Origin: Malachius bipustulatus
Taxonomy: Eukaryota; Arthropoda; Insecta; Coleoptera; Melyridae
Direction of reading: 5' to 3'
Assembly (NCBI GenBank): GCA_910589415.1
Contig: OU342635.1
Span: 5,642,001 to 5,706,000 of the forward strand
Length of the DNA stretch: 64,000 bases
Below, in pieces: positions 8,991 through 50,489 of the stretch. A program made the translations under genes and the position numbers. The notes beneath the pieces are model-generated. The model was given only the letters and a program-made list of their open reading frames with translations. It ran no database searches and was not told the origin of the DNA. Positions within the stretch are counted from its first letter, which is position 1. The number at the start of each line of letters is the position of its first letter.

Positions 8991-9472
8991 GGTACCTACT
9001 AAAGATCAACACCGGAGAGAGATCCGACCAACGAAATCAAACCAAGGGTGAAATCACGGCATTAAAGAAAGACAGCCATATAAAATTGCACGCAGCAAAC
9101 GTGTAAAGTATATGTAACAATTCCTAAACCTGAAAACCGTTAAAGGGACTGCAAGAGAGACGAAAAGGCGCGCCCTTACCGTGCGAGAGAAGGACGCAAA
9201 AGGCGGCAGTCAGTGCTAGGGGTGTTTCTATTCAGAAGGGGTGTGTCCTGGATATCGCCGCCCCTCTTGATCGCAAGGGCTAGCTCAAAACACTTATGAC
9301 CAGTACTTTGCACAATCTACTACTCTCGATAACTTATTTTATGTTCTGTGAATAATAAAAAACTCGTCGCTCCGTTTAATCATCTTTACACCTACCGATA
9401 CCATTTCATATTTAAATTATTATGGACATTAATACCTACCTATAAGTGAAAAAAAAACGGGACTTTGCAAGG
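8991..9472 (+). promoter_or_regulatory. Probable Hmx promoter and 5' leader
   Basis: This is the repeat-free segment immediately before the first in-frame ATG of Hmx. It is less AT-rich than its surroundings at 9000-9280. A TCAGTG at 9210-9215 fits an arthropod initiator, but I see no good TATA box or downstream element at the expected spacing. In the Hmx frame a TAA at 9443-9445 closes upstream reading. A non-coding first exon further upstream is possible. Promoter status is inference. Confidence 0.3.
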
Positions 9473-9831
9473 ATGAGTTCTCCAGTTCGCGAAATTGATG
9501 TGAACGTTGTTTCCAGTCCCGAATTGTCCAGCAGGAATAATTCGCCGGAACCGGAAAGCTACAGGATAATAAACCACATCCCTTCGTCTGACATAATGAG
9601 TTTCCCTGTGATAAAAATCAATAACAGTGATAATGATAAGAACGAGGAAAACAAAGGAACTTCTAAGACATCGACGCAAAAAAGTGCTGGTGGTTCAACG
9701 AACTTTTCGATTTCGAGTATTTTGTCGAGGACTGAACCGACGGCTAAGAAAAACGGATTTCCGGGAACGGGGCAGAGTTCGTTAGAGCCCGCGGGGATTC
9801 AATGTGGGCCTGATAGTGCCATGCTCTCGAG
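9473..9831 (+). CDS. HMX-family homeobox protein, coding exon 1
   Basis: Residues 1-119 and two bases of codon 120. The start is the first in-frame ATG after an upstream TAA, with A at -3. The exon ends TCGAG before GTAAGA (donor at 9832). It encodes a Ser/Pro-rich acidic N-terminus. An engrailed-homology-1-like motif, FSISSIL (residues 78-84), followed by SRTEP, is the kind of sequence that recruits Groucho corepressors in many NK-type factors. The split codon is completed by exon 2 at 24964, and the three exons together give 429 residues. HMX proteins are nuclear transcription factors of neural and sensory development (family knowledge). The exon call rests on the frame-preserving join and the eh1-like motif, since the homeodomain is in exon 3. 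Confidence 0.85.
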
Positions 9832-10028
9832 GTAAGATATTTTGAATTAATTTTCGATCCTTTAATATTTTAATTAATAATTAGGTATCTACTATTATTA
9901 ATAATTGAGATACACCTTACCTATAGGTGTATCTTTCTTTTTTTATGCATCATTTTTTATTTTTATAAAAAGTTTTTCTTTGAGAGTAGGTACCTAATAG
10001 GTCCTATACATTTATTATAAAGTACCTA

Positions 10029-24960: not shown

Positions 24961-24963
24961 CAG

Positions 24964-25112
24964 GTTAGGTCTTATGTCACATTTTGGTGCTTTGGCGGCG
25001 GCAAGCAGTAGATACGCCGCTCTTTGCGGGAATCAAGCTGATTCAAGGACATTGCCTTGGTACTGGGGTCGGATACCTTCCCAAATACCTCAAGAGAAAC
25101 CAAGTCCGAACG
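24964..25112 (+). CDS. HMX-family homeobox protein, coding exon 2
   Basis: 149 bases coding residues 120-169 plus the first base of codon 170. The acceptor is TTGTTCCAG before 24964; the donor is GTACGT at 25113. It reads LGLMSHFGALAAASSRYAAL and then LPWYWGRIPSQIPQEKPSPN, a linker between the N-terminal repression motif and the homeodomain. The PWYW core resembles a conserved Pro-Trp-Tyr patch I associate with this family, though I am less sure of that. Phases agree with exon 1 (two bases carried over) and exon 3 (one base carried over), which is the main support. Confidence 0.8.
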
Positions 25113-25544: not shown

Positions 25545-27164
25545 TTTTTTTTTTTTTTTTTTAAGCTTTAAGTGTCTCGACAGCTGGAGGTCATTGACAC
25601 AGTTACAATACAATTACATAATTATGATATCAGAAATTTAGTTAATGGTTAAAGACAGGTGTTTTAAATAGTAGTGACAGTATAATTATAATTTTGAAAA
25701 CAAATTGATGTCTTGTAGGTAGTTGATAACTTGAGAGAGTCGTTCAGTGGAACTGAGGAGTTCTTTTATATTTCCTTCTATGTTATGTTTGCTTCGGCTC
25801 CTAGTTAATTTTAAGCATCCTGTGAGGATGTGTTTGACAGTAAGGCTGTTGTTACAGTGCTCACAGAGCGGTGGATTTTCTGCCGCCATCAAGAACCCAT
25901 GGGTGAGTTTAGTGTGTCCAATACGTAGTCGACGAATCACCAGTTTGTTCCTTCTGGTCATAGTTGGAGGGAGTTCGAGTCGAGTAATGGATGGTTGGAT
26001 CTCATGCAGTTTTGAGGTGATTCCGTCCCAATGATTTTGCCAGGCAGTCTTGGTGGCTTTTGTGAAATAGGTTTTTAAGTCTCTATAGATTTGAGTATTT
26101 GTATGGACTGTGGGAGATAATGAGGCTTCTTTGGCAGCCTCGTCAGCCTTTTCGTTTCCCGCTATGCCTATGTGAGACGGGACCCATATCAGTGTTAGAT
26201 TGCTTCCCCGGGAGACCAGCCTGTCATGTGTGTTGTGGATATCCTGCACTATTGGATGTTGTGTGTAGAGACATCTAATGGAATCGATAGACGAGAGCGA
26301 ATCAGTGCAAATAGCTATATTCTTAGATTCCTTATTTATAGACTTGATGGCTTGAAGGATTCCGAATAGTTCCCCCGTATGCACACTAGCAGAAGATGGT
26401 AGAGACATGGTGGCGACGATGTTGTCGAGTGTAACCACCGCGCAGCCGACGCAGGTTTCACTCTTAGACGCGTCAGTGTATAAAATTTCATCGAAATTGG
26501 AGGTGTTGATTATATTCAGGAATGATTTTCTTAGAAGCTCTTTCGGGGTATCGTGTTTGGGATGGCGGCTGAGCGACGTGTTGAGGTTTGGGAGAGTTCT
26601 TTCCCAAGGCGGGGTGGTGGATGTCGGAAGATGGCATGTAGATAGGAGAGAAACATTCAGGTCTGTCAGGGAGGTTAGGTGTGCGTGGAGAATTTGTGGA
26701 ATGGATAGAATCTTAGGAGGAGGATCAGGTTGAGATCCCATTGAGGTGAGAAGCGAGTATGCTGGGTTCTGGGGGTTCGCTGATATCCTTGCAAAGTAAC
26801 TCAATAGAAGTTGTTGACGTCTCAGCTTGAGAGGGGGTTCGTTAGCTTCACAGTAGACGCTCTCACTTGGACTGGATCTGAAGGCTCCGAGACACATTCT
26901 TAGAGCGGTGTTGTGAATCGAGTTTAAGCTTTTTAAGGTGAATTCCGAAGCAGACATATAGATGACACTGCCGTAGTCTATTTTGGAACGAATAAGAGTA
27001 CGATAAGAGTACGAAGAATTTGTTTTTAATAAGATATTGAAAATAATCCCTAAGATATGGGCAGTTCCCTTGAAAGGCACTTTGTAAGATAATCTATTAA
27101 ATAAGGTGTAACCAGGCACAAAAGTAAGATTTAGTTGTATATTTGAAGGGTACTTAAACGGCAT
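25545..27164 (-). pseudogene. 5'-truncated Jockey/I-group LINE: RT end, RNase H, zinc knuckle
   Basis: An open frame from 27164 to 25686 (492 codons) gives the last part of a LINE ORF2. First comes the end of the reverse transcriptase region, with LGIIFN and then SKIDYGSVIYMSAS, apparently with a deletion between them. An RNase H domain follows, with acidic residues in ILYTDASKSE, HTGELFGILQAI, AICTDSLSSID and WVPSHIGIAGNEKADEAAKE. A Cys-His knuckle, CEHCNNSLTVKHILTGC, comes near the end. A 3' UTR of about 120 bp and a poly-T run at 25545-25562 (a poly-A tail on this strand) mark the true 3' end. The catalytic half of the RT and the endonuclease are absent. The intact RNase H frame suggests moderate age. 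The first ATG at 27164 is not a real start. Confidence 0.85.
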
Positions 27165-28640
27165 GAAATGGTTTCAGAAGCCGTACGCCGCAAGTTGCAG
27201 ACTAATCGACGAAGCTTTAGAAATGCGGATTGAACGCCGCTGACAGCTACGTGAAATGGAAATCGGACCAAGCAATAAAAACCTGGAAACACTAATCTGC
27301 CTATGTACTTAGATTGAATAAATTCATCACACGTTGCTTTCATAGAATTTGTATTTGAATTTACAAACCTATAAGTACTAAGAACCACTTCCTTCAACTC
27401 AGTTAGTATTAACATTATAACAATCCAAAATTATGAAGGTATTTACTGTTAAAAATAGGTATCTAGGAATGAAATCAGATCTCATTTGCTCTAGCTGAAA
27501 CGCTTAAAATTAAAGCTACAATGTTCATTTTTTATTGCGACATCTGTATGGCTTCCTTGGCATTTGTCAAACACGAAGAATAATAGGAAGCGACATATTC
27601 ATTGCGGAGAGATATTTTTTCAGACGTAAAAAATTCCATCCTTCAAATTAAAAGAATATTTTTCCCTGCCTTTTGCTTCAAAGAATACTCCAAATCCACT
27701 GCAGGAATTTTATTAATTTTTAGTAAATTATGATTATTTTTTGGGTTTGGTTAACAACTGCGGCAAGAAAATCTGTTTAGAAATGACGTCCCGATGAGTG
27801 GGCCATTGTGATACCTACCTCCACTGCGATCGAAGGTCTATTGTGGCTCACATCTAGTCATTAAATGAAGAGTTAGCTGGAAATTTTTGAGTCTCTTACG
27901 AGTCTTTCACTTTATCAATAAAAAATTCCTTACTCTTTAACACAACTATAACCCTTAATCTCCAAATCTAAATAATCAGCTGTTCTCTTATTTACATTCA
28001 GATATTACTAACACAACTACTTTTACTTCACTTGTCACAATCACTTCACTCTGTTCCCCACTCTATGTCTTCCACTTCCAATCACAACTTCATTCAAAAA
28101 CAACAACAATCTAAACCACAACTGACTCCTAGAGTGCCGACAGCTCTTATCATATACCCGTCGGCGTGTCTTTAAATGTCTGGTAGTTTCACGGATACTT
28201 TCACGCGGTCTCGAACATACGCAGAACGCGGAAGCATTCTGATATTAGGAATAATTATTGTCCAGAAGGTAACAAAACAAAAAAAATGCAGATCCAGAAT
28301 ACTTCGTGTTCTTTCGTTATAATACTTACAGGGTTATTCCAAATATGTGCGAAAATTTTAGAGGGCCATTCCTTGCTTCTTTCTAAGGAAAAAGGTCCTA
28401 TATCAAAGCTAAAAGAGTAGTAGACAACACAATATCGAAATGGATTCAAAACATGCTGTTGATGAGAATAGTTGAAACCAATGTGGACAAGAACACCAAC
28501 ACCATTCAGATGAATAAATACAACAAACTAAAGAACATCTATAGCTTTCCAGCACCGCCCGACGGATGGAATGCCCGAAAATGTACAATCTTCATGGGGC
28601 TTCTATTCCCGATGGATACAATCAAACAGTCGCGCTGTCG
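27165..28640. other. Intronic, no gene recognised
   Basis: No exon, RNA or clear repeat. CAGGGTTATTCC near 28329 resembles a transposon end without a partner. The segment 28440-28640 may belong to the decayed LINE that follows, but I cannot read conserved protein there. Confidence 0.35.
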
Positions 28641-28765
28641 TTAGTTCTTGTCTCCATCGATAGATGGCAACAAACTCTTGGAGTCACGGAGATCCGTGTC
28701 GATTTTCCATATAAGAGCTGGCTTCCTGGGCTGATTTAGCATGCATCCTCTGGTTGTTTCTCGAT

Positions 28766-28805
28766 GTGCTGTACTGATGAGGTCATAAAGAGACCGAAAC
28801 AGCAC
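28766..28805 (+). ncRNA. Hammerhead-like fold lacking stem I
   Basis: Reads GTGCTGT (28766-28772), A, CTGATGA (28774-28780), GGTC, ATAAAGA, GACC (28792-28795), GAA and then ACAGCAC (28799-28805). GTGCTGT and ACAGCAC pair perfectly over 7 bp, in the position of hammerhead stem III with the U16.1-A15.1 closing pair. GGTC/GACC make a perfect 4-bp stem II. CTGATGA and GAAA are the exact conserved core strands. Stem I is absent: the candidate H17 (A at 28773) is followed directly by C3. It could be a deletion derivative of a ribozyme or a self-contained hairpin of a mobile element. A chance match with both stems is unlikely. Cleavage is not shown. Confidence 0.5.
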
Positions 28806-28879
28806 GTTTTCTGCAGCTTCGAGATGACTAGATGGCTTTGTGCTCTGTGTGTTGGTCTGCCTCATGGAAGCCCTAGGCT

Positions 28880-30383
28880 AGAGCGTAATAACAGCCCTGA
28901 AAAGTTATTCAAAAATTCAACGCTCTATTAACATTATTATTTGAAACTGAAGAACTCCACAAGGAGTATTATCCCCAGTTCTGTGGAGTCTGGTCGTTGA
29001 CGAGCTACTCACCGAGAACGGTATTATTGCTTGGGCATACTGATAACACCGTCATAATGGCCAAGGGCAAATTTGAAGAATGACATTATACAGAGTGCGC
29101 TAAAAATAACCCTGAAATGGTGCCAGGAAGTAGGACTAAACATCAACCCTAGAAAAACAACCCTTGTACCATTCCCAAAAGAGTCGAGCTTCCAGAAATC
29201 AAGACCACCCTCTTATGCGGAGTTGATTTATAATAGAAGAAAGAAGTTAGAATTCTAGGAGTCTAGACAAAAAACTACTATGTACACCATGTACCATGTG
29301 TGATACCTGTCATCACATACGGAGCGGTTGCCTGGTACAAGAGGACTGAAAGAGTAACACCAAGCAAAACACTCGAGAAATTCCAAAGGATCCCATCACG
29401 TTTTCGCATCACGGTAGCAACGAGAACTTGTCAAACTGTAGCGTTGGAAGTGATCTTGGATCTGACACCACTACATTTTGTGATCGAGAGAAGAGCCGGA
29501 GAAGCTTTCCTTAGAATGTCAAGAGCAGGAATCAGAACTGGACAGCAAACCACTGATGATCAACCCTTAAGTGGCTGCGAGAAACTCGTGACACTGCCAA
29601 AAGAGAGAAGAAATTCAGTTTCGAAAGAAACTTCATCATGAAAATGTCTATGAAAGAGAATAACACTTTCCAACATCACTCTCAATAAAGAAGGCACGAT
29701 TAAATGGTACACAGACGGCTCTAAACCATCTAGGAAACCAGGGCAGGAGTCTATGGATCTCGTACCAATTACTTCAAACCCATGGAAACATCCCCCAATC
29801 ATACTTCCAGCGGAAATACACGCAACTACGAAAAGAGACAGCATCAACTACAAGAAAAAAGAAATTGAATTATGGACGGGTAGTCAAGCAACCATAAAGA
29901 CGTTGGCTCTTCGACCATCAGCTCCAAAAAGGCTTGGCGTGCCTAGAAAAACTTAACGAATTAGGCAATAAAATGAGCATCAACATCATTCTGTGGCTTC
30001 GAAGAACATTCTTCAAGGCAGAACTCCGAAATGAAGAAGAAAACCTGACAGATATCCATTGCAGAAACCACTCAGGGTTGAGACAAGGTAAAGAACTCCT
30101 CGAGTACTTCAACCAAGAAAGATCTAAAATACTTCTCAACCCCGGTAAAGAATATCTTAGAAGACTGGCGGGATTCATGACGGGACATTGTAAGCTCAAG
30201 GAACGCCTGAATAAGTTAGGCGTAAAAGATAAAGCGTCTGCAGGTTTTGAAAAATGGGAGACGATAGAAACGCTGTGGCTCAGCACCAGCTGGAGTCAGG
30301 GGATCTATACCTTGATCTACCTTCATCCTTTCAAAACCCTCACGTTTCTCAAGAAAACGGACTTGGAGAGAGTACTTCATTAA
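28880..30383 (+). pseudogene. Decayed LINE (I/R1/LOA-like): RT, RNase H and C-terminal remnants
   Basis: Read across frames, a VLSPVLWSLVVDELL-type RT block (near 28966-29010) is followed by the catalytic box, here HTDN in place of the usual YADD (near 29037), then TVIMAKGKFEE. Next come WCQEVGLNINPRKTTLVPF (about 29112-29170), ITYGAVAWYKRT, and a VALEVILDLTPLHFVIE block (near 29440-29485). RNase H remnants follow (WYTDGSK near 29703, LPAEIHAT near 29808), then the terminal domain LRRLAGFMTGHCKLKERLNK (near 30158-30215). Stops and frameshifts are frequent. The same C-terminal domain occurs in the relic at 53217-54270. The clade assignment is tentative. Confidence 0.75.
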
Positions 30384-30808: not shown

Positions 30809-31666
<858 letters not shown>

Positions 31667-45074: not shown

Positions 45075-48000
45075 TTACTGGTTAGGTAACGGGCAAAGTT
45101 TGACCAGAGGTCGTTTACAAAGACCTCTGGTCGTACGAACCGAGGCAACCCTGGCGACACCATCCGCACCAGGGTGCAAAGAAACAATTCTTCCTAGAGC
45201 TGCTAGGAAAGTCTCTGACGATAAATCAGAAGCGATTTCGAGATGAATCGCGCGAGTCGCGAAACATACGAACAAACATAAATAGGCTTTAGAAGTTTTG
45301 ACACCCCTATACCTCGACAAGACAATAGGAAAGGGTCCCCCATAATCGACCCCGACACAACTAAAAGGCTTCAATTGGGAGACACGAGCGACAGGTAAAT
45401 TCCCCATGGGAGGCTCCAACGAGAGGGGACGAGTGCGAAAGCAACGATTGCATTTCGACAAATAACTACGAATGACCCTACGAGCAGACAGGATCCAAAA
45501 ATTTTGTTGAAGGAGATAATGAGTAGTGTTCACTCCTGGGTGCAAATTACCTCGATGTATCTGATCAATCAAAAGTTCAACCAACCTATGCCTTCCTGGC
45601 AACAATGCGGGATATTTAGCGTCGAATGCTAAACCCGAATGCAACAGTCGACCCCCGACTCGCAAAATACCGAAATCATCAATAAAGGGCGACAATGACT
45701 GCAAGTACTTGGCACATGGTTTACCAGAGCGAATTTTCTCCAATTCCGAAGAGAAGACCGAAGATTGAACAATTCTAACAATGTGCATGAGAGCAGCATG
45801 CAACTCAGAGACACTCAATGCACCAGTGGTCCTATTGACAGCACGACAATTGTTAGTGAAACGAAAACAACGAGCGATAATACCCTGAATTTTCCTCAAA
45901 GAAGAAAATCTTTTCAACAAAACATCGACATCCGAAATCTCTATCGTAGCGAACAAAACAATATTCCTTTTCTCCAGTTCAACATCAGAAGTGGGAGCAA
46001 TGGGAAAGAGTGCTGGCCAAGATTCCAGCGGCAATCTGAGGAATTCAGGCCCCGCCCACCATGCGGAAGCCCCGACTAACTCCTCTGGTAACAAGCCCCG
46101 AGACGCGACGTCCGCTGGGTTGTCACCTGAACGTACATGATTCCAACAATCCGGAGGAATTCGATCCTGAATGTGGACGACACGATTCGAAACAAAAGTC
46201 TTCCACCGATGTGGAGACGACTTGATCCAGGATAGAGCGACCGAAGAGTCACTCCAAGCGAAAACCTTATCAACAACAATGGATTGAGGACCTTGTTCAA
46301 GGACGAACGAAACGAGATCTGATAGTAAGACTGCGGCACACAATTCCAGCCGTGGAACGGAGAGTGGTTTGAGCGGAGCAACACGAGACTTGGCAGTAAC
46401 GAAACGAACCTGCACATTGCCATCGGCGTCCTCGAAACGATAATACACCACACCCGCATAACCTGCAGTCGACGCATCACAAAATGCGTGCAGTTGACAC
46501 GACACGAAAGATCCTTCGGGAACCAAGCACCTAGGGATTGTCAACTTGGATAAAACATGAAGAGTGGACTTATATCGATTCCACTTTTCGACAACATCAG
46601 CTGGTGGATCTTCATCCCAATCCAGCCCGAGATACCACAAATGTTGAATGACTCGTTTTGCCATAAAGGTCAATGGGCACAAGAAACCCAACGGGTCATA
46701 GATCTTAGCGACTTCTGAGAGAATGCTTCTCTTAGTACAAGGTGAATCTATGGACTTAACCATGAACGAAAACGAATCAGTAGCCGATTGCCACTGAAGG
46801 CCAAGAATTTTCACCGAAAAGTCCGATTCCGAATCAAAGTTGGATGACTGCTGTTGACAATGTTCAACCGGCAGATCCTGAAGCAATTGTGGATTGTTAG
46901 CAGACCATTTCCGCAACTCAAATTGTCCCAATTGCAATAGCGAAATGAGCTGATTTCTCAACTCCAAGGTTTCCTCGATTTGATTTGCCCCAATGGCAAA
47001 ATCATCGACATAAAGCCCGAGACGAATGGCTTTCGAAGCGAGAGGAAACTTCTCAGAATTTTCTTGAGCTAATTGTAACAAGCACCTAATGGCCAAATAT
47101 GGCGAGGACGAAACACCATAAGTTACAGTGTTCAATTTGTAACTTCGAATAGGATCCTTTTCTGAAAAACGCCAACGAATTAATTGATACTGTCGATGTG
47201 AATCTCCAACTAAAATTTGCCGATACATCTGCCTAATGTCACAAGTGAACACGAATTTGTTCTCTCGAAAACGAAGCAAAACACTAGTGATGTCATTTTG
47301 CAACTTCGGACCAATCAACAAGGTATCATTTAACGAAAGATTGTTCGATGCTTTGGCCGAGGCGTCGAACACGACACGAATTTTCGACGATACTGGGGCG
47401 AGCGAAGACACATCAGAAGACATCGAAACACCAGGGTCTTTAAAAACGCAATGATGCGGAATGTAATAAGAGTTTGCAGATTCCGACTCCAATGGCACCA
47501 ACGACATGTGCCCAGCCTCCAAATAATCTTTCATAAACTCTACATACATGTCTCTAATGTGAGGCAACCTCGACAATCGTCTCTCCAAAGCGAGCAAACG
47601 ACGATCTGCGACATTCAACGAATCATTAAAGATAGGCAACTCTTTGCTATCCTTAAATGGCAACAATACCCCAAAACGACCTGATTCTTCTCGATAATGA
47701 GACTCAACGAACAACGACTCAGCCTCTTGTTCCTCATTAGAGCAAACCTCAACTGAAGGCACCTCCTCAACTCTCCAAAATGCCTTAAGAGTCTCTTCAA
47801 GGGTCGAATCTACCGACGCAAAACAAGCTTGAACCTCGCCCGCAACCTTCGACGAAATGGTTCCCAAAAGAACCCAACCAAACGTCGTGTTCATTGCGGC
47901 TGGACAGTTATCACTGCCCGACAAATAACCACCATGAACAATATTGGGAAAGATGTCAGCTCCTAGCAAAACATCGACAGAACCAGGCGTGTACCAATTA

Positions 48001-49748
48001 GGATCCGCTAACTTCAAATTATCAAGCGCCTTCGATGGCGAAATGTCAACACTGGGAAGTTTTCCACAAATATTGGGCAAGACCAAAGTACTTACTTTAA
48101 AAGTAGGTGATGGTACCCCAACGGGACGAATAATGCAATCAGATGATCCCTGGGCCGATCCCAAGGTCACGTGACCCAAACAAGAAATAGGTGTTGATGA
48201 TCGATTCAAGTGCAAGCCCAAACGCTTGCGGCACCGATCAGTAATAAAAGACGACTGACTGCCAGAGTCAATTAAAGAACGAACCACTTGATAGTTGCCC
48301 CACTTGTCTTGAACTTCAATACATGCGGTTGCTAAAAGAACCGTAGTATTGCTACGAGAACGAGAACGAACATCCTGAAAGGATGGGAGAGAAGACATGG
48401 CAACCGTGGATGCGACTGGAGGCGGCTCAACTCGATGAGAAGCTGCTCCATCCGAATTACTAAGTTTAACGAAATGTAATAAAGAGTGGTGCCGACCTGC
48501 ACACTCCTTACACGAATGAGAAGAGGGGCACTGCTTCACCAAGTGTGAAGGGCCAAAACAATTTAGGCACAAGCGCGCTGCCTTCACAGCCTCAAAACGC
48601 TTGCGCGGGTCCAACTTCAAAAAAGAACGACAATTCGAGATCGGGTGTTCTCCATTACAATGGAAGCACGACTGCTTCGATGAAGACGCACTCGACGTTG
48701 ACAAAAATGCATGTGAATTCCTCGATTCCACTTTTCCACCAGACTTGACGCTACTCCGCTTACCAACGACTGCAGACGGAGATAGGTCATTCCCCAAAGA
48801 TGATTCTAATGCACGACACTGTGACGACAAAAACTTGTGCAAATCCTGATATGATGGAAACTCTTCAGATGCAAATTGGAGTTCGAAACGCTTTCGAGTA
48901 GCGTTATCCAATTTCTGTAGCAACCAGTTGAACAAAGTGAAATCCCAGAGAGAGACGCCTGAGACCTGACCCAAAGCTGTAATATTTTCTGAAAAGGTAT
49001 TCAACAATTCACGAAGCGATTGTGAGGAATCAGAATCCGTTATTTTGGGAGCATTACAAATCGCCTGCCAATAACACGTCGCAAGTACTCGCTCATTCTG
49101 ATACCTTTGGACAAGAGTATCGAAAGCTATCACATAATTGTCATCTGTCAGTGGTAAATGTTTGACAAGGGTAAGAGGTTCCTTTGACAAAGTCGAAACT
49201 AAATACTGGAACTTCTCAATTGGAGCTAACGAATCATTCGAATGAATCAAAGTCCTAAACAAATCATAATAAACCGACCACATCCTCAACGAACCATCAA
49301 AAGTAGGTATACCGATACGAGGCAATTTCACATGTGAACTTGCAGAGGGGGGTAGCGCGGGAGCACCAGACTGTCGACTATTTAACGATTCACTCGAACC
49401 ATGACGTGATTTCACCACCGTATCCTGAGTCGATTCCAACGACAATTGAACCGCTCTAATCTGAAAATAAACCGAATCAACTTCGATAAGTAGTCCCGAG
49501 TATGATTTCCAAATCTCCGATGACACATCTACGACCAAAGCACTCTTATCTGCCGACTCAACCGTAATCAGGATATTTCTATCAACCTCCTGCACCTGAT
49601 TGTACAAATCTGAAGCGCTGTCGCATGCAGCCAGGACAATAAAACGCGACTTTTCATCAATGGGTGCTGAAACTACTGTCAGAATCGAGTTCAAACGAGT
49701 CAAAAACTTCGAAACAGAAGCGTTTGCTCCGACCAAAGTGTTGGACAT
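45075..49748 (-). CDS. BEL/Pao Gag-Pol polyprotein with integrase core deleted
   Basis: 1557 residues from the ATG at 49748. The frame is open a few codons further upstream, but without an ATG. Gag-like region: a conserved LPRIGIPTFDGSLRMWSVYY block (about residues 140-165). Zinc knuckles: CFHCNGEHPISNC (about 361-373) and CLNCFGPSHLVKQC with CKEC..RHH (about 393-425). Aspartic protease: SLIDSGSQSSFIT with catalytic Asp494. Reverse transcriptase: YVDD at 913-916. RNase H: HAFCDAST with Asp1091. Integrase: the HHCC zinc domain (HRGNLHPGVNTTHYLL to CNRC, about 1395-1445) and the first catalytic Asp1468 in VDYGGPF. Near residue 1518 the frame jumps from FLAAL to LGRIVSLHPGADGVARVASV, the typical extreme C-terminus of BEL Pol. 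The remaining catalytic residues and about 250-300 residues are therefore missing without breaking the frame. Confidence 0.9.
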   Translation of the reverse strand: MSNTLVGANASVSKFLTRLNSILTVVSAPIDEKSRFIVLAACDSASDLYNQVQEVDRNILITVESADKSALVVDVSSEIWKSYSGLLIEVDSVYFQIRAVQLSLESTQDTVVKSRHGSSESLNSRQSGAPALPPSASSHVKLPRIGIPTFDGSLRMWSVYYDLFRTLIHSNDSLAPIEKFQYLVSTLSKEPLTLVKHLPLTDDNYVIAFDTLVQRYQNERVLATCYWQAICNAPKITDSDSSQSLRELLNTFSENITALGQVSGVSLWDFTLFNWLLQKLDNATRKRFELQFASEEFPSYQDLHKFLSSQCRALESSLGNDLSPSAVVGKRSSVKSGGKVESRNSHAFLSTSSASSSKQSCFHCNGEHPISNCRSFLKLDPRKRFEAVKAARLCLNCFGPSHLVKQCPSSHSCKECAGRHHSLLHFVKLSNSDGAASHRVEPPPVASTVAMSSLPSFQDVRSRSRSNTTVLLATACIEVQDKWGNYQVVRSLIDSGSQSSFITDRCRKRLGLHLNRSSTPISCLGHVTLGSAQGSSDCIIRPVGVPSPTFKVSTLVLPNICGKLPSVDISPSKALDNLKLADPNWYTPGSVDVLLGADIFPNIVHGGYLSGSDNCPAAMNTTFGWVLLGTISSKVAGEVQACFASVDSTLEETLKAFWRVEEVPSVEVCSNEEQEAESLFVESHYREESGRFGVLLPFKDSKELPIFNDSLNVADRRLLALERRLSRLPHIRDMYVEFMKDYLEAGHMSLVPLESESANSYYIPHHCVFKDPGVSMSSDVSSLAPVSSKIRVVFDASAKASNNLSLNDTLLIGPKLQNDITSVLLRFRENKFVFTCDIRQMYRQILVGDSHRQYQLIRWRFSEKDPIRSYKLNTVTYGVSSSPYLAIRCLLQLAQENSEKFPLASKAIRLGLYVDDFAIGANQIEETLELRNQLISLLQLGQFELRKWSANNPQLLQDLPVEHCQQQSSNFDSESDFSVKILGLQWQSATDSFSFMVKSIDSPCTKRSILSEVAKIYDPLGFLCPLTFMAKRVIQHLWYLGLDWDEDPPADVVEKWNRYKSTLHVLSKLTIPRCLVPEGSFVSCQLHAFCDASTAGYAGVVYYRFEDADGNVQVRFVTAKSRVAPLKPLSVPRLELCAAVLLSDLVSFVLEQGPQSIVVDKVFAWSDSSVALSWIKSSPHRWKTFVSNRVVHIQDRIPPDCWNHVRSGDNPADVASRGLLPEELVGASAWWAGPEFLRLPLESWPALFPIAPTSDVELEKRNIVLFATIEISDVDVLLKRFSSLRKIQGIIARCFRFTNNCRAVNRTTGALSVSELHAALMHIVRIVQSSVFSSELEKIRSGKPCAKYLQSLSPFIDDFGILRVGGRLLHSGLAFDAKYPALLPGRHRLVELLIDQIHRGNLHPGVNTTHYLLQQNFWILSARRVIRSYLSKCNRCFRTRPLSLEPPMGNLPVARVSQLKPFSCVGVDYGGPFPIVLSRYRGVKTSKAYLCLFVCFATRAIHLEIASDLSSETFLAALGRIVSLHPGADGVARVASVRTTRGLCKRPLVKLCPLPNQ

Positions 49749-49769
49749 TTTGCTAAAGAGTATCAACAA

Positions 49770-50489
49770 AACACTAAAGCAATAAACGAATAAGGGTTAT
49801 TTTTTACACCTGTAAAAAATACAACGACAACGAAATACGAACAATAACTAAAAATAAGTACCTAACCAAGTGAAGGTTACTTATTTAAAAACGAGTTGAA
49901 AATAAATTGACTTTGAAATTCACCAAAAAACAATACTTGAGATACCGAGTGTACCCAGTAGGTATACCGTGAATACAAAAATCAATATTTTCCCTGTAAC
50001 AACGAAAAAGGGTTATTCGTTAAAAACCTGTAAAAATACAACAACAACGAACGATGAGCAATACCAAAAATAAGTACCTAACCAAGTGAAAGTTACTTAT
50101 TTAATATCGAGTTGAAAATAAATTATTGAATTCGAATTCACCAAAAACAATACTTAAGATACCGAGTGTACCCAGTATACCGTGAATGCAAAAATCAATA
50201 TTCTGCCCTGCGAATTCAGAGAGAAAATATTTCAACTATTACAGAGGTTTTTAAAACGAACACCTGCAACGAACGAAGAAGTGGAGTGAGGTGAGAATGG
50301 AGTAAAATTAGTGGAATGGGTGAAAATGCCGTCTGGCGTCCTTTGGATCGACTATTTCGAATCCTTTGACCTACAAACAGGCTACCTTAACACAGTGAGT
50401 GAGAAACTAATTTCAAACAAATGATGCAACCAATTAATGAACTATATTTCCACGAGCTTTCCTATCCGACTACGGAGGGACCAAAAAAA
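49770..50489 (-). repeat. BEL 5' leader with a two-unit tandem repeat
   Basis: This lies between the 5' LTR and the Gag-Pol start. Two near-identical units of about 215 bp (about 49792-50005 and 50010-50215) share GGGTTATT, AAAATAAGTACCTAACCAAG, CGAGTTGAAAATAAATT, GATACCGAGTGTACCCAGTA and ACCGTGAATG in order. The leader is non-coding and could hold packaging or dimerisation signals, which is inference only. Confidence 0.7.
50466..50483 (-). other. Candidate primer binding site of the BEL element
   Basis: On the element strand, six Ts after the 5' LTR, TGGTCCCTCCGTAGTCGG begins with the TGG expected for pairing to a tRNA CCA end. The implied tRNA 3' end is CCGACTACGGAGGGACCA; I cannot name the tRNA with certainty. 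Confidence 0.5.

What the first reader, a model, noticed from the sequence alone, without database searches (positions are those of the whole stretch)
28766..28805. Hammerhead-like RNA fold with perfect stems II and III but no stem I
GTGCTGT/ACAGCAC (7 bp) and GGTC/GACC (4 bp) surround the exact core strands CTGATGA and GAAA. That is the hammerhead layout except that stem I is missing and the cleavage-site base is joined directly to C3. Two perfect stems plus both invariant core strands in 40 nt is far beyond chance for 64 kb. It sits in an Hmx intron just before a LINE relic, so it may be part of a retroelement or an undescribed minimal variant.
Basis: partly seen in the sequence, partly recalled or inferred. 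Interest (0 to 1): 0.75.

Follow-up and report, generated by a model that had tools for sequence, protein, structure and literature searches.

The report
Decayed hammerhead ribozyme in beetle retroelement
The odd two-stemmed hammerhead is a mutated copy of an ordinary three-stemmed self-cutting RNA carried by a small jumping element with many copies in this beetle genome; it is not a new minimal ribozyme, although the way its copies insert head-to-head is informative.

Summary
The letters are as described and chance is very unlikely (0 equally good placements in 1.28 Gb simulated), but the layout was misread. The host genome gives 43 matches, the window included (a lower bound). Aligned copies show a type I hammerhead: stem I TCTCGA/TCGAGA plus GCTGTA/TGCAGC, stem II GGTC/GACC, stem III ACA/TGT, cleavage site GTC. 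In the window copy stem I is complete but lies partly outside the reported coordinates, and stem III is damaged (C·U mismatch, longer loop). The reported 7-bp stem is the stem I 5' strand pairing with the stem III 5' strand. The type I fold has lower computed energy in 34 of 37 copies; the window copy is the strongest exception. 15 of 37 copies keep a complete type I ribozyme. The unit is a ~447-bp repeat: 18 of 32 insertions are head-to-head, none tail-to-tail, and 5 of 24 have clear 11-13 bp target-site duplications. This resembles Penelope-like terminal anatomy and suggests mobilisation by such an enzyme. No such gene was identified; the genome-wide family search did not complete. New member of a known kind.

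The parts
28525..28536 (.). Left target-site duplication AAACTAAAGAAC
   Evidence: 11 of 12 identical to 28944-28955; score 8, which 17 of 552 mismatched flank pairs reach: suggestive for this copy alone.
28537..28943 (+). One unit of the repeat family, 5'-truncated by about 32 nt relative to the 447-bp reference unit (L122:1263-1709)
   Evidence: BLAST: unit positions 33-444 = L121 1300-1706 = window 28535-28941, 86% identity; borders set by the TSD.
28759..28764 (+). Stem I outer 5' strand TCTCGA, pairs with 28819-28824
   Evidence: Alignment A1; 94.6% of cells paired.
28768..28773 (+).
   Evidence: 97.8% of cells paired.
28774..28780 (+). Core strand CTGATGA (C3-A9)
   Evidence: 33 of 37 copies keep all core bases tested.
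28781..28795 (+). Stem II GGTC-ATAAAGA-GACC
   Evidence: 97.6% of cells paired.
28796..28799 (+). Core strand GAAA (G12-A15.1)
   Evidence: invariant in the 37 aligned copies.
28799..28810 (+). Stem III, damaged here: ACA-GCACGT-TTT; most copies have ACA-GCGT-TGT
   Evidence: A1; the R1 match marks the C.U non-pair and two inserted bases.
28811..28811 (+). C17, predicted cleavage 3' of this base (TTC here; GTC in 32 of 37 copies)
   Evidence: Site listing; layout from the Rfam HH9 alignment of the L123 copy.
28812..28817 (+). Stem I inner 3' strand TGCAGC
28819..28824 (+). Stem I outer 3' strand TCGAGA
28944..28955 (.). Right target-site duplication AAACTGAAGAAC

Best explanation
A decayed copy of a classical type I hammerhead ribozyme inside one unit of a ~447-bp, apparently non-coding, ribozyme-bearing retroelement (retrozyme-like) of a beetle. 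The confidence given is for this first sentence. Shown by sequence: family copies, three-stem type I architecture, GTC site, tandem and head-to-head dimers, target-site duplications at some insertions. Inferred: intact copies self-cleave multimeric transcripts 3' of C17. Inferred, about 0.55 likely: a Penelope-like reverse transcriptase copies the RNA from its 3' end into both ends of a staggered break, and two 5'-truncated cDNAs join to give head-to-head dimers. The window copy is one 5'-truncated insertion whose ribozyme is probably slow or dead, because stem III has lost its central G-C pair and the stem I 5' strand now pairs better with the stem III 5' strand.
For: 43 genomic matches, the window included. 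19-pair type I structure 96.3% paired on A1, 37 copies; 15 of 37 complete in pairs, core and H17. Type I fold lower in energy in 34 of 37; the window copy is 5.7 kcal/mol the other way. Rfam aligns the L123 copy to Hammerhead_HH9 in this layout, 24.1 bits. Insertions: 18 of 32 head-to-head, 4 tandem, 10 single, 0 tail-to-tail. TSD score >=11 in 5 of 24 against 0.04 expected; four of the five are head-to-head. Head-to-head inverted pLTRs, a 31-bp tail optionally on one of them and 8-10 bp TSDs are described for rotifer Penelope elements (PMC3846280, passages). A lizard Penelope protein cuts and extends both strands at AT-rich/ATT sites (PMC11167929, passages).
Against: No copy reaches an Rfam gathering score (0 in 11 loci; HH9 24.1 of 52). 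Free RNAfold minimum structures of the consensus are not type I: they pair part of the core (-20.6 against -17.1 kcal/mol with the core open), and folding z-scores are modest (-0.98 to -2.21). No covariation. 19 of 24 insertions lack a TSD score >=11. 11 of 50 outer ends stop before unit position 400, and the second arm of three head-to-head cases (L134, L145, L149) is a fragment under 40 nt. The rotifer paper prefers self-priming on an antisense template to explain head-to-head arrangements, and the lizard study found its ribozyme inactive without protein and not needed for insertion in vitro. No Penelope ORF was recognised by eye in 13 fetched stretches.
Confidence: 0.93

Rival explanations
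1. One reading: an undescribed hammerhead variant without stem I, in which A17 is joined directly to C3.
For: Both core strands and two perfect stems; Hammerhead_3 alignment with stem I deleted, 29.0 bits; the window copy by itself prefers this fold by 5.7 kcal/mol; 97.6% of cells with letters on both sides are paired.
Against: All its pairs occur in 5 of 37 copies; 34 of 37 fold better as type I; a full stem I flanks the interval.
Confidence: 0.03
2. Sub-case of the best explanation: the unit is the pseudo-LTR of an autonomous Penelope-like element of this genome, not an independent non-autonomous element.
For: Head-to-head dimers, partial tandems, two main 3' end classes (400-433: 20 of 50 ends; 440-447: 19 of 50), no head-to-head dimer with both ends long (0 of 18), (ATT)n at unit junctions. 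Penelope elements carry hammerheads (PMC11167929, PMC7761336, passages).
Against: No Penelope ORF recognised near copies in 13 stretches. Penelope ribozymes are described as minimal variants lacking helix III or the loop-loop contacts; this one has a 3-4 bp stem III and an internal loop in stem I.
Confidence: 0.3
3. Head-to-head dimers arise by self-priming on an antisense transcript (as proposed for rotifer Penelope elements), not by priming at both ends of the break.
For: PMC3846280 passages give this as the best interpretation of head-to-head Penelope repeats with palindromes at the junction.
Against: The two arms are truncated at different unit positions in many dimers (e.g. L124 55/213, L128 149/234), which fits two separate cDNAs better; junction palindromes were not tested.
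Confidence: 0.3
4. Tandem satellite DNA amplified at DNA level, with no retrotransposition.
For: Head-to-tail units joined directly in some loci, e.g. L126, L142, L158; a hammerhead-bearing satellite family is reported in cave crickets (PMC2837043, search listing only).
Against: Dispersed single and dimeric copies on many contigs, 5'-truncated, some with TSDs.
Confidence: 0.04
5. Chance resemblance to a hammerhead.
For: Reading many windows multiplies opportunities.
Against: 0 in 1.28 Gb simulated; 15 of 37 relatives carry a complete type I ribozyme.
Confidence: 0.005

Closest known systems
Type I hammerhead ribozyme (Rfam Hammerhead_HH9 RF02275 is the best match of the L123 copy; that HH9 counts as type I is recalled)
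   Same: CUGAUGA and GAAA core, three stems in type I order, GUC site, internal loop in stem I and a 7-nt stem II loop
   Different: Below Rfam gathering scores; loop-loop contacts not tested; window copy has a broken stem III
Metazoan non-LTR retrozymes (PMC7229834; passages seen)
   Same: Type I ribozyme in a short repeat of low GC (44%); 447 bp is at the top of the 150-450 bp quoted for the repeats; some tandem copies; TSDs, where present, longer than 4 bp
   Different: Longer than the ~170-400 nt quoted for the RNAs; head-to-head dimers predominate here. 'inverted', 'orientation' and 'opposite' do not occur in that main text
Penelope-like element pseudo-LTRs (PMC3846280, PMC11167929; passages seen)
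   Same: Head-to-head inverted copies within one TSD, partial tandems, two 3' end classes about 30 nt apart, AT-rich/ATT junctions, hammerhead
   Different: No RT/GIY-YIG ORF found; stem III present; unit 447 bp against 181-218 bp pLTRs in the rotifer passages; TSDs 11-13 bp against 8-10 bp there
Hammerhead_3 (Rfam RF00008, type III)
   Same: Local match of the reported 40 nt
   Different: Matches only with stem I deleted; the family is type I

Membership tests
Type I hammerhead ribozyme | Core CUGANGA ... GAAA with A15.1-U16.1 and H17 | tested here: met
   33 of 37 copies keep all core bases tested; the window copy keeps them
Type I hammerhead ribozyme | Three stems, stem I open-ended | tested here: met
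   Family: 17 of 37 have 19/19 pairs; window copy 18 of 19, stem III broken
Type I hammerhead ribozyme | Reaches Rfam gathering score | tested here: not met
   0 in window, 0 in 11 loci; HH9 24.1 of 52
Type I hammerhead ribozyme | Compensatory changes in the stems | tested here: inconclusive
   0 pairs with a two-sided change; mean column identity 95%
Type I hammerhead ribozyme | Self-cleavage 3' of H17 | not testable with these tools
   Needs a transcription assay
Stem-I-less minimal hammerhead (reader) | Outer 7-bp stem conserved in copies | tested here: not met
   5 of 37 copies keep all 11 pairs; two pairs absent in 23 of 31 distinct rows
Metazoan retrozyme | Type I ribozyme in a short tandem repeat | tested here: met
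   447-bp unit; head-to-tail units in L126, L142, L158, though tandem is only 4 of 32 insertions
Metazoan retrozyme | Circular RNA intermediate | not testable with these tools
   No RNA data
Penelope-like element | Head-to-head inverted terminal repeats inside one TSD | tested here: met
   18 of 32 head-to-head; TSD score >=11 in four of these: L133, L136, L141, L145
Penelope-like element | Optional ~30-nt 3' tail on one of the inverted copies | tested here: inconclusive
   12 of 18 head-to-head cases have exactly one long end, none both; hand-computed probability of no double about 0.06
Penelope-like element | RT plus GIY-YIG ORF | tested here: inconclusive
   None recognised by eye in 13 stretches, no profile search run on them; PF01541 genome search did not complete

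The most novel reading that the evidence does not exclude
A non-autonomous retrozyme with a classical (stem III-bearing) type I hammerhead that is mobilised by a Penelope-like reverse transcriptase through two-sided target-primed reverse transcription. It would be a genomic-anatomy link between metazoan retrozymes and Penelope-like elements, which a review I saw in passages (PMC7761336) proposes as likely but does not show there.
Probability: 0.45. Interest if true: 0.5.

Novelty: new member of a known kind. Interest (0 to 1): 0.3.

Why it matters
It removes a supposed new ribozyme variant and shows how a decayed copy can look like one: one substitution and a longer loop let a stem I strand pair with a stem III strand. 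The family itself bears on an open question, which enzyme moves metazoan retrozymes, because its insertions carry Penelope-type scars (head-to-head dimers, some within one clear TSD, variable 5' truncation, two main 3' end classes).

Tried and rejected
Non-circular permutations (PMC10085705: outline and parts 1-3 of 8): considered because a stem I strand could lie elsewhere; not needed, since the order here is the ordinary type I order. snoRNA look-alikes (snoZ17 15.1 bits and others): far below thresholds, rejected. Covariation as arbiter: uninformative. Literature: ('hammerhead', 'lacking stem I', 'stem I-less', 'without stem I', 'two-stem hammerhead', 'absence of stem I'; at least two terms) found 0 papers; ('type I hammerhead', 'retrozyme', 'head-to-head', 'inverted', 'metazoan'; at least four) found 0. 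Both cover only the held open-access library. Pfam on three pieces of the flanking relic gave nothing at E<=1.

Rows dropped: A1 and R1 use 37 copies from the 30 loci L121-L150; BLAST hits not spanning the ribozyme, and repeats of one place, were dropped. TSD test: 24 of 30 loci (5 repeats of a place and L149 left out). Insertion tally: 25 of those 30 plus 7 of 13 later stretches. Of the other six, L151, L153, L154, L155 and L157 cover places already counted and L152 has no unit; one further partial hit (L155:8482-8596, 77%) was not counted. In one search hits under 25 bases, hits contained in others and clusters away from the main one were dropped.

Full report
What is there. The 40 nt at 28766-28805 read exactly as reported. 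Rfam's best match is Hammerhead_3 with its stem I segment deleted, 29.0 bits against a gathering score of 48.5; nothing in the window reaches gathering. In 1.28 Gb of simulated sequence with the window's dinucleotide make-up no placement was as good, so the hammerhead resemblance is real.

The family. A 100-base query around the motif has 43 matches in the 544-Mb host assembly, the window included, mostly at 92-96% identity; 40 of 1034 first-look candidates were scored, so this is a lower bound. The host is a beetle, judged from the Hmx homeodomain exon at about 30860-31666: of 3438 proteins found (120 listed), the best named ones are from Tenebrio, Exocentrus, Leptinotarsa and other beetles.

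The correct structure. Most copies read TTTCTCGATGTGCTGTACTGATGAGGTCATAAAGAGACCGAAACAGC(--)GTTGTCTGCAGCTTCGAGATGA. This is a type I hammerhead: stem I outer TCTCGA/TCGAGA and inner GCTGTA/TGCAGC with an internal loop TGT/T; CTGATGA; stem II GGTC/GACC with loop ATAAAGA; GAAA; stem III ACA/TGT with tetraloop GCGT; cleavage after the C of GTC (32 of 37 copies have GTC). Rfam aligns the L123 copy to Hammerhead_HH9 in this layout, 24.1 bits, E 0.00036 for that small search, below gathering 52. Unconstrained RNAfold does not give this fold for the consensus: it pairs part of the core (-20.6 kcal/mol).

Why the window copy looks stem-I-less. It has two more bases in the stem III loop than most copies and T where most have G, so stem III is ACA-GCACGT-TTT with a C.U mismatch. 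The longer loop, with CAC, then continues a complementarity between GCTGT (stem I) and ACAGC (stem III). With both folds projected on each of the 37 copies, type I has the lower energy in 34; the window copy is the strongest exception, by 5.7 kcal/mol. By the share of cells paired the two folds are alike (96.3% and 97.6%), and neither has a two-sided compensatory change, so pair counts alone do not decide.

The element. With L122:1263-1709 as reference unit (447 bp, 44% GC), units occur singly, in tandem, and most often head-to-head with 3' ends outward. Of 32 insertions 18 are head-to-head, 4 tandem, 10 single, none tail-to-tail; 50 outer 3' ends fall at 440-447 (19), 400-433 (20) or before 400 (11). 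In L134, L145 and L149 the second arm is a fragment under 40 nt. Flank comparison finds duplications scoring >=11 in 5 of 24 insertions against 0.04 expected from mismatched flanks; four of the five are head-to-head (L133, L136, L141, L145), so each of these entered as one insertion. 19 of 24 have no such clear duplication. The window unit spans 28537-28943 between AAACTAAAGAAC and AAACTGAAGAAC (score 8, reached by 17 of 552 control pairs), in sense orientation in the last Hmx intron (my reading of the exons). The sequence on both sides looks to me like one LINE relic, downstream reading TPQGVLSPVLWSLVVDELL, but the joined flanks gave no uninterrupted frame and Pfam did not confirm it.

How it probably works. 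Inferred: tandem or read-through transcripts are cut at GTC by intact ribozymes. A reverse transcriptase primes on both ends of a staggered break from the RNA's 3' end, and two 5'-truncated cDNAs meet, giving head-to-head dimers with one target duplication. Penelope elements are the best candidates. A rotifer study describes head-to-head inverted pLTRs, a 31-bp tail optionally on one of them and 8-10 bp duplications, and itself prefers self-priming on an antisense template as the cause (PMC3846280, passages). A lizard Penelope protein cuts and extends both strands at ATT sites; its ribozyme needed the protein to cut and was not needed for insertion in vitro (PMC11167929, passages). A review names Penelope elements and Terminons as likely movers of retrozymes (PMC7761336, passages). 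In 18 head-to-head cases, 12 have exactly one long end and none has two; by hand the chance of no double is about 0.06. No Penelope ORF was recognised by eye in the 13 stretches fetched (ORFs of at least 90 or 130 codons), and the genome-wide family search did not complete, so whether the unit is a Penelope pLTR or an independent retrozyme is open.

Verdict. Hammerhead: yes. Stem-I-less variant: no. It is a decayed member of a type I hammerhead retroelement family.

Noticed in passing
L131, L132, L144, L145, L150: A subfamily with two extra stem III loop bases: most of its copies can form stem III ACAG-NNNN-TTGT (one more G.U pair) and have TACAGC instead of TGCAGC in stem I; the window copy belongs to this length class.
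   Followed up: partly
window 45075-49796 (-): A 1573-codon open frame with Pao/BEL retrotransposon domains (Peptidase_A17, DUF1759, integrase zinc-binding, DUF5641, RVT_1).
   Followed up: no
window 25686-27173 (-): A 495-codon open frame with an RNase H domain, probably a LINE 3' part, also in the Hmx intron (LINE and intron are my reading).
   Followed up: no
window 9446-9835, about 24962-25111, about 30860-31666 (+): Likely Hmx exons; only the last (homeodomain) was supported by a search; the first gave no Pfam match.
   Followed up: partly
L028, L029, L031, L038, L077: Viral contigs hold GTACTGATGA...CGAAAC sequences with 4-6 bp stem II and short outer stems, possibly ordinary hammerheads.
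   Followed up: no
L131 and L160: Head-to-head insertions whose right arm stops at unit position 73 or 345 instead of at a usual 3' end.
   Followed up: no
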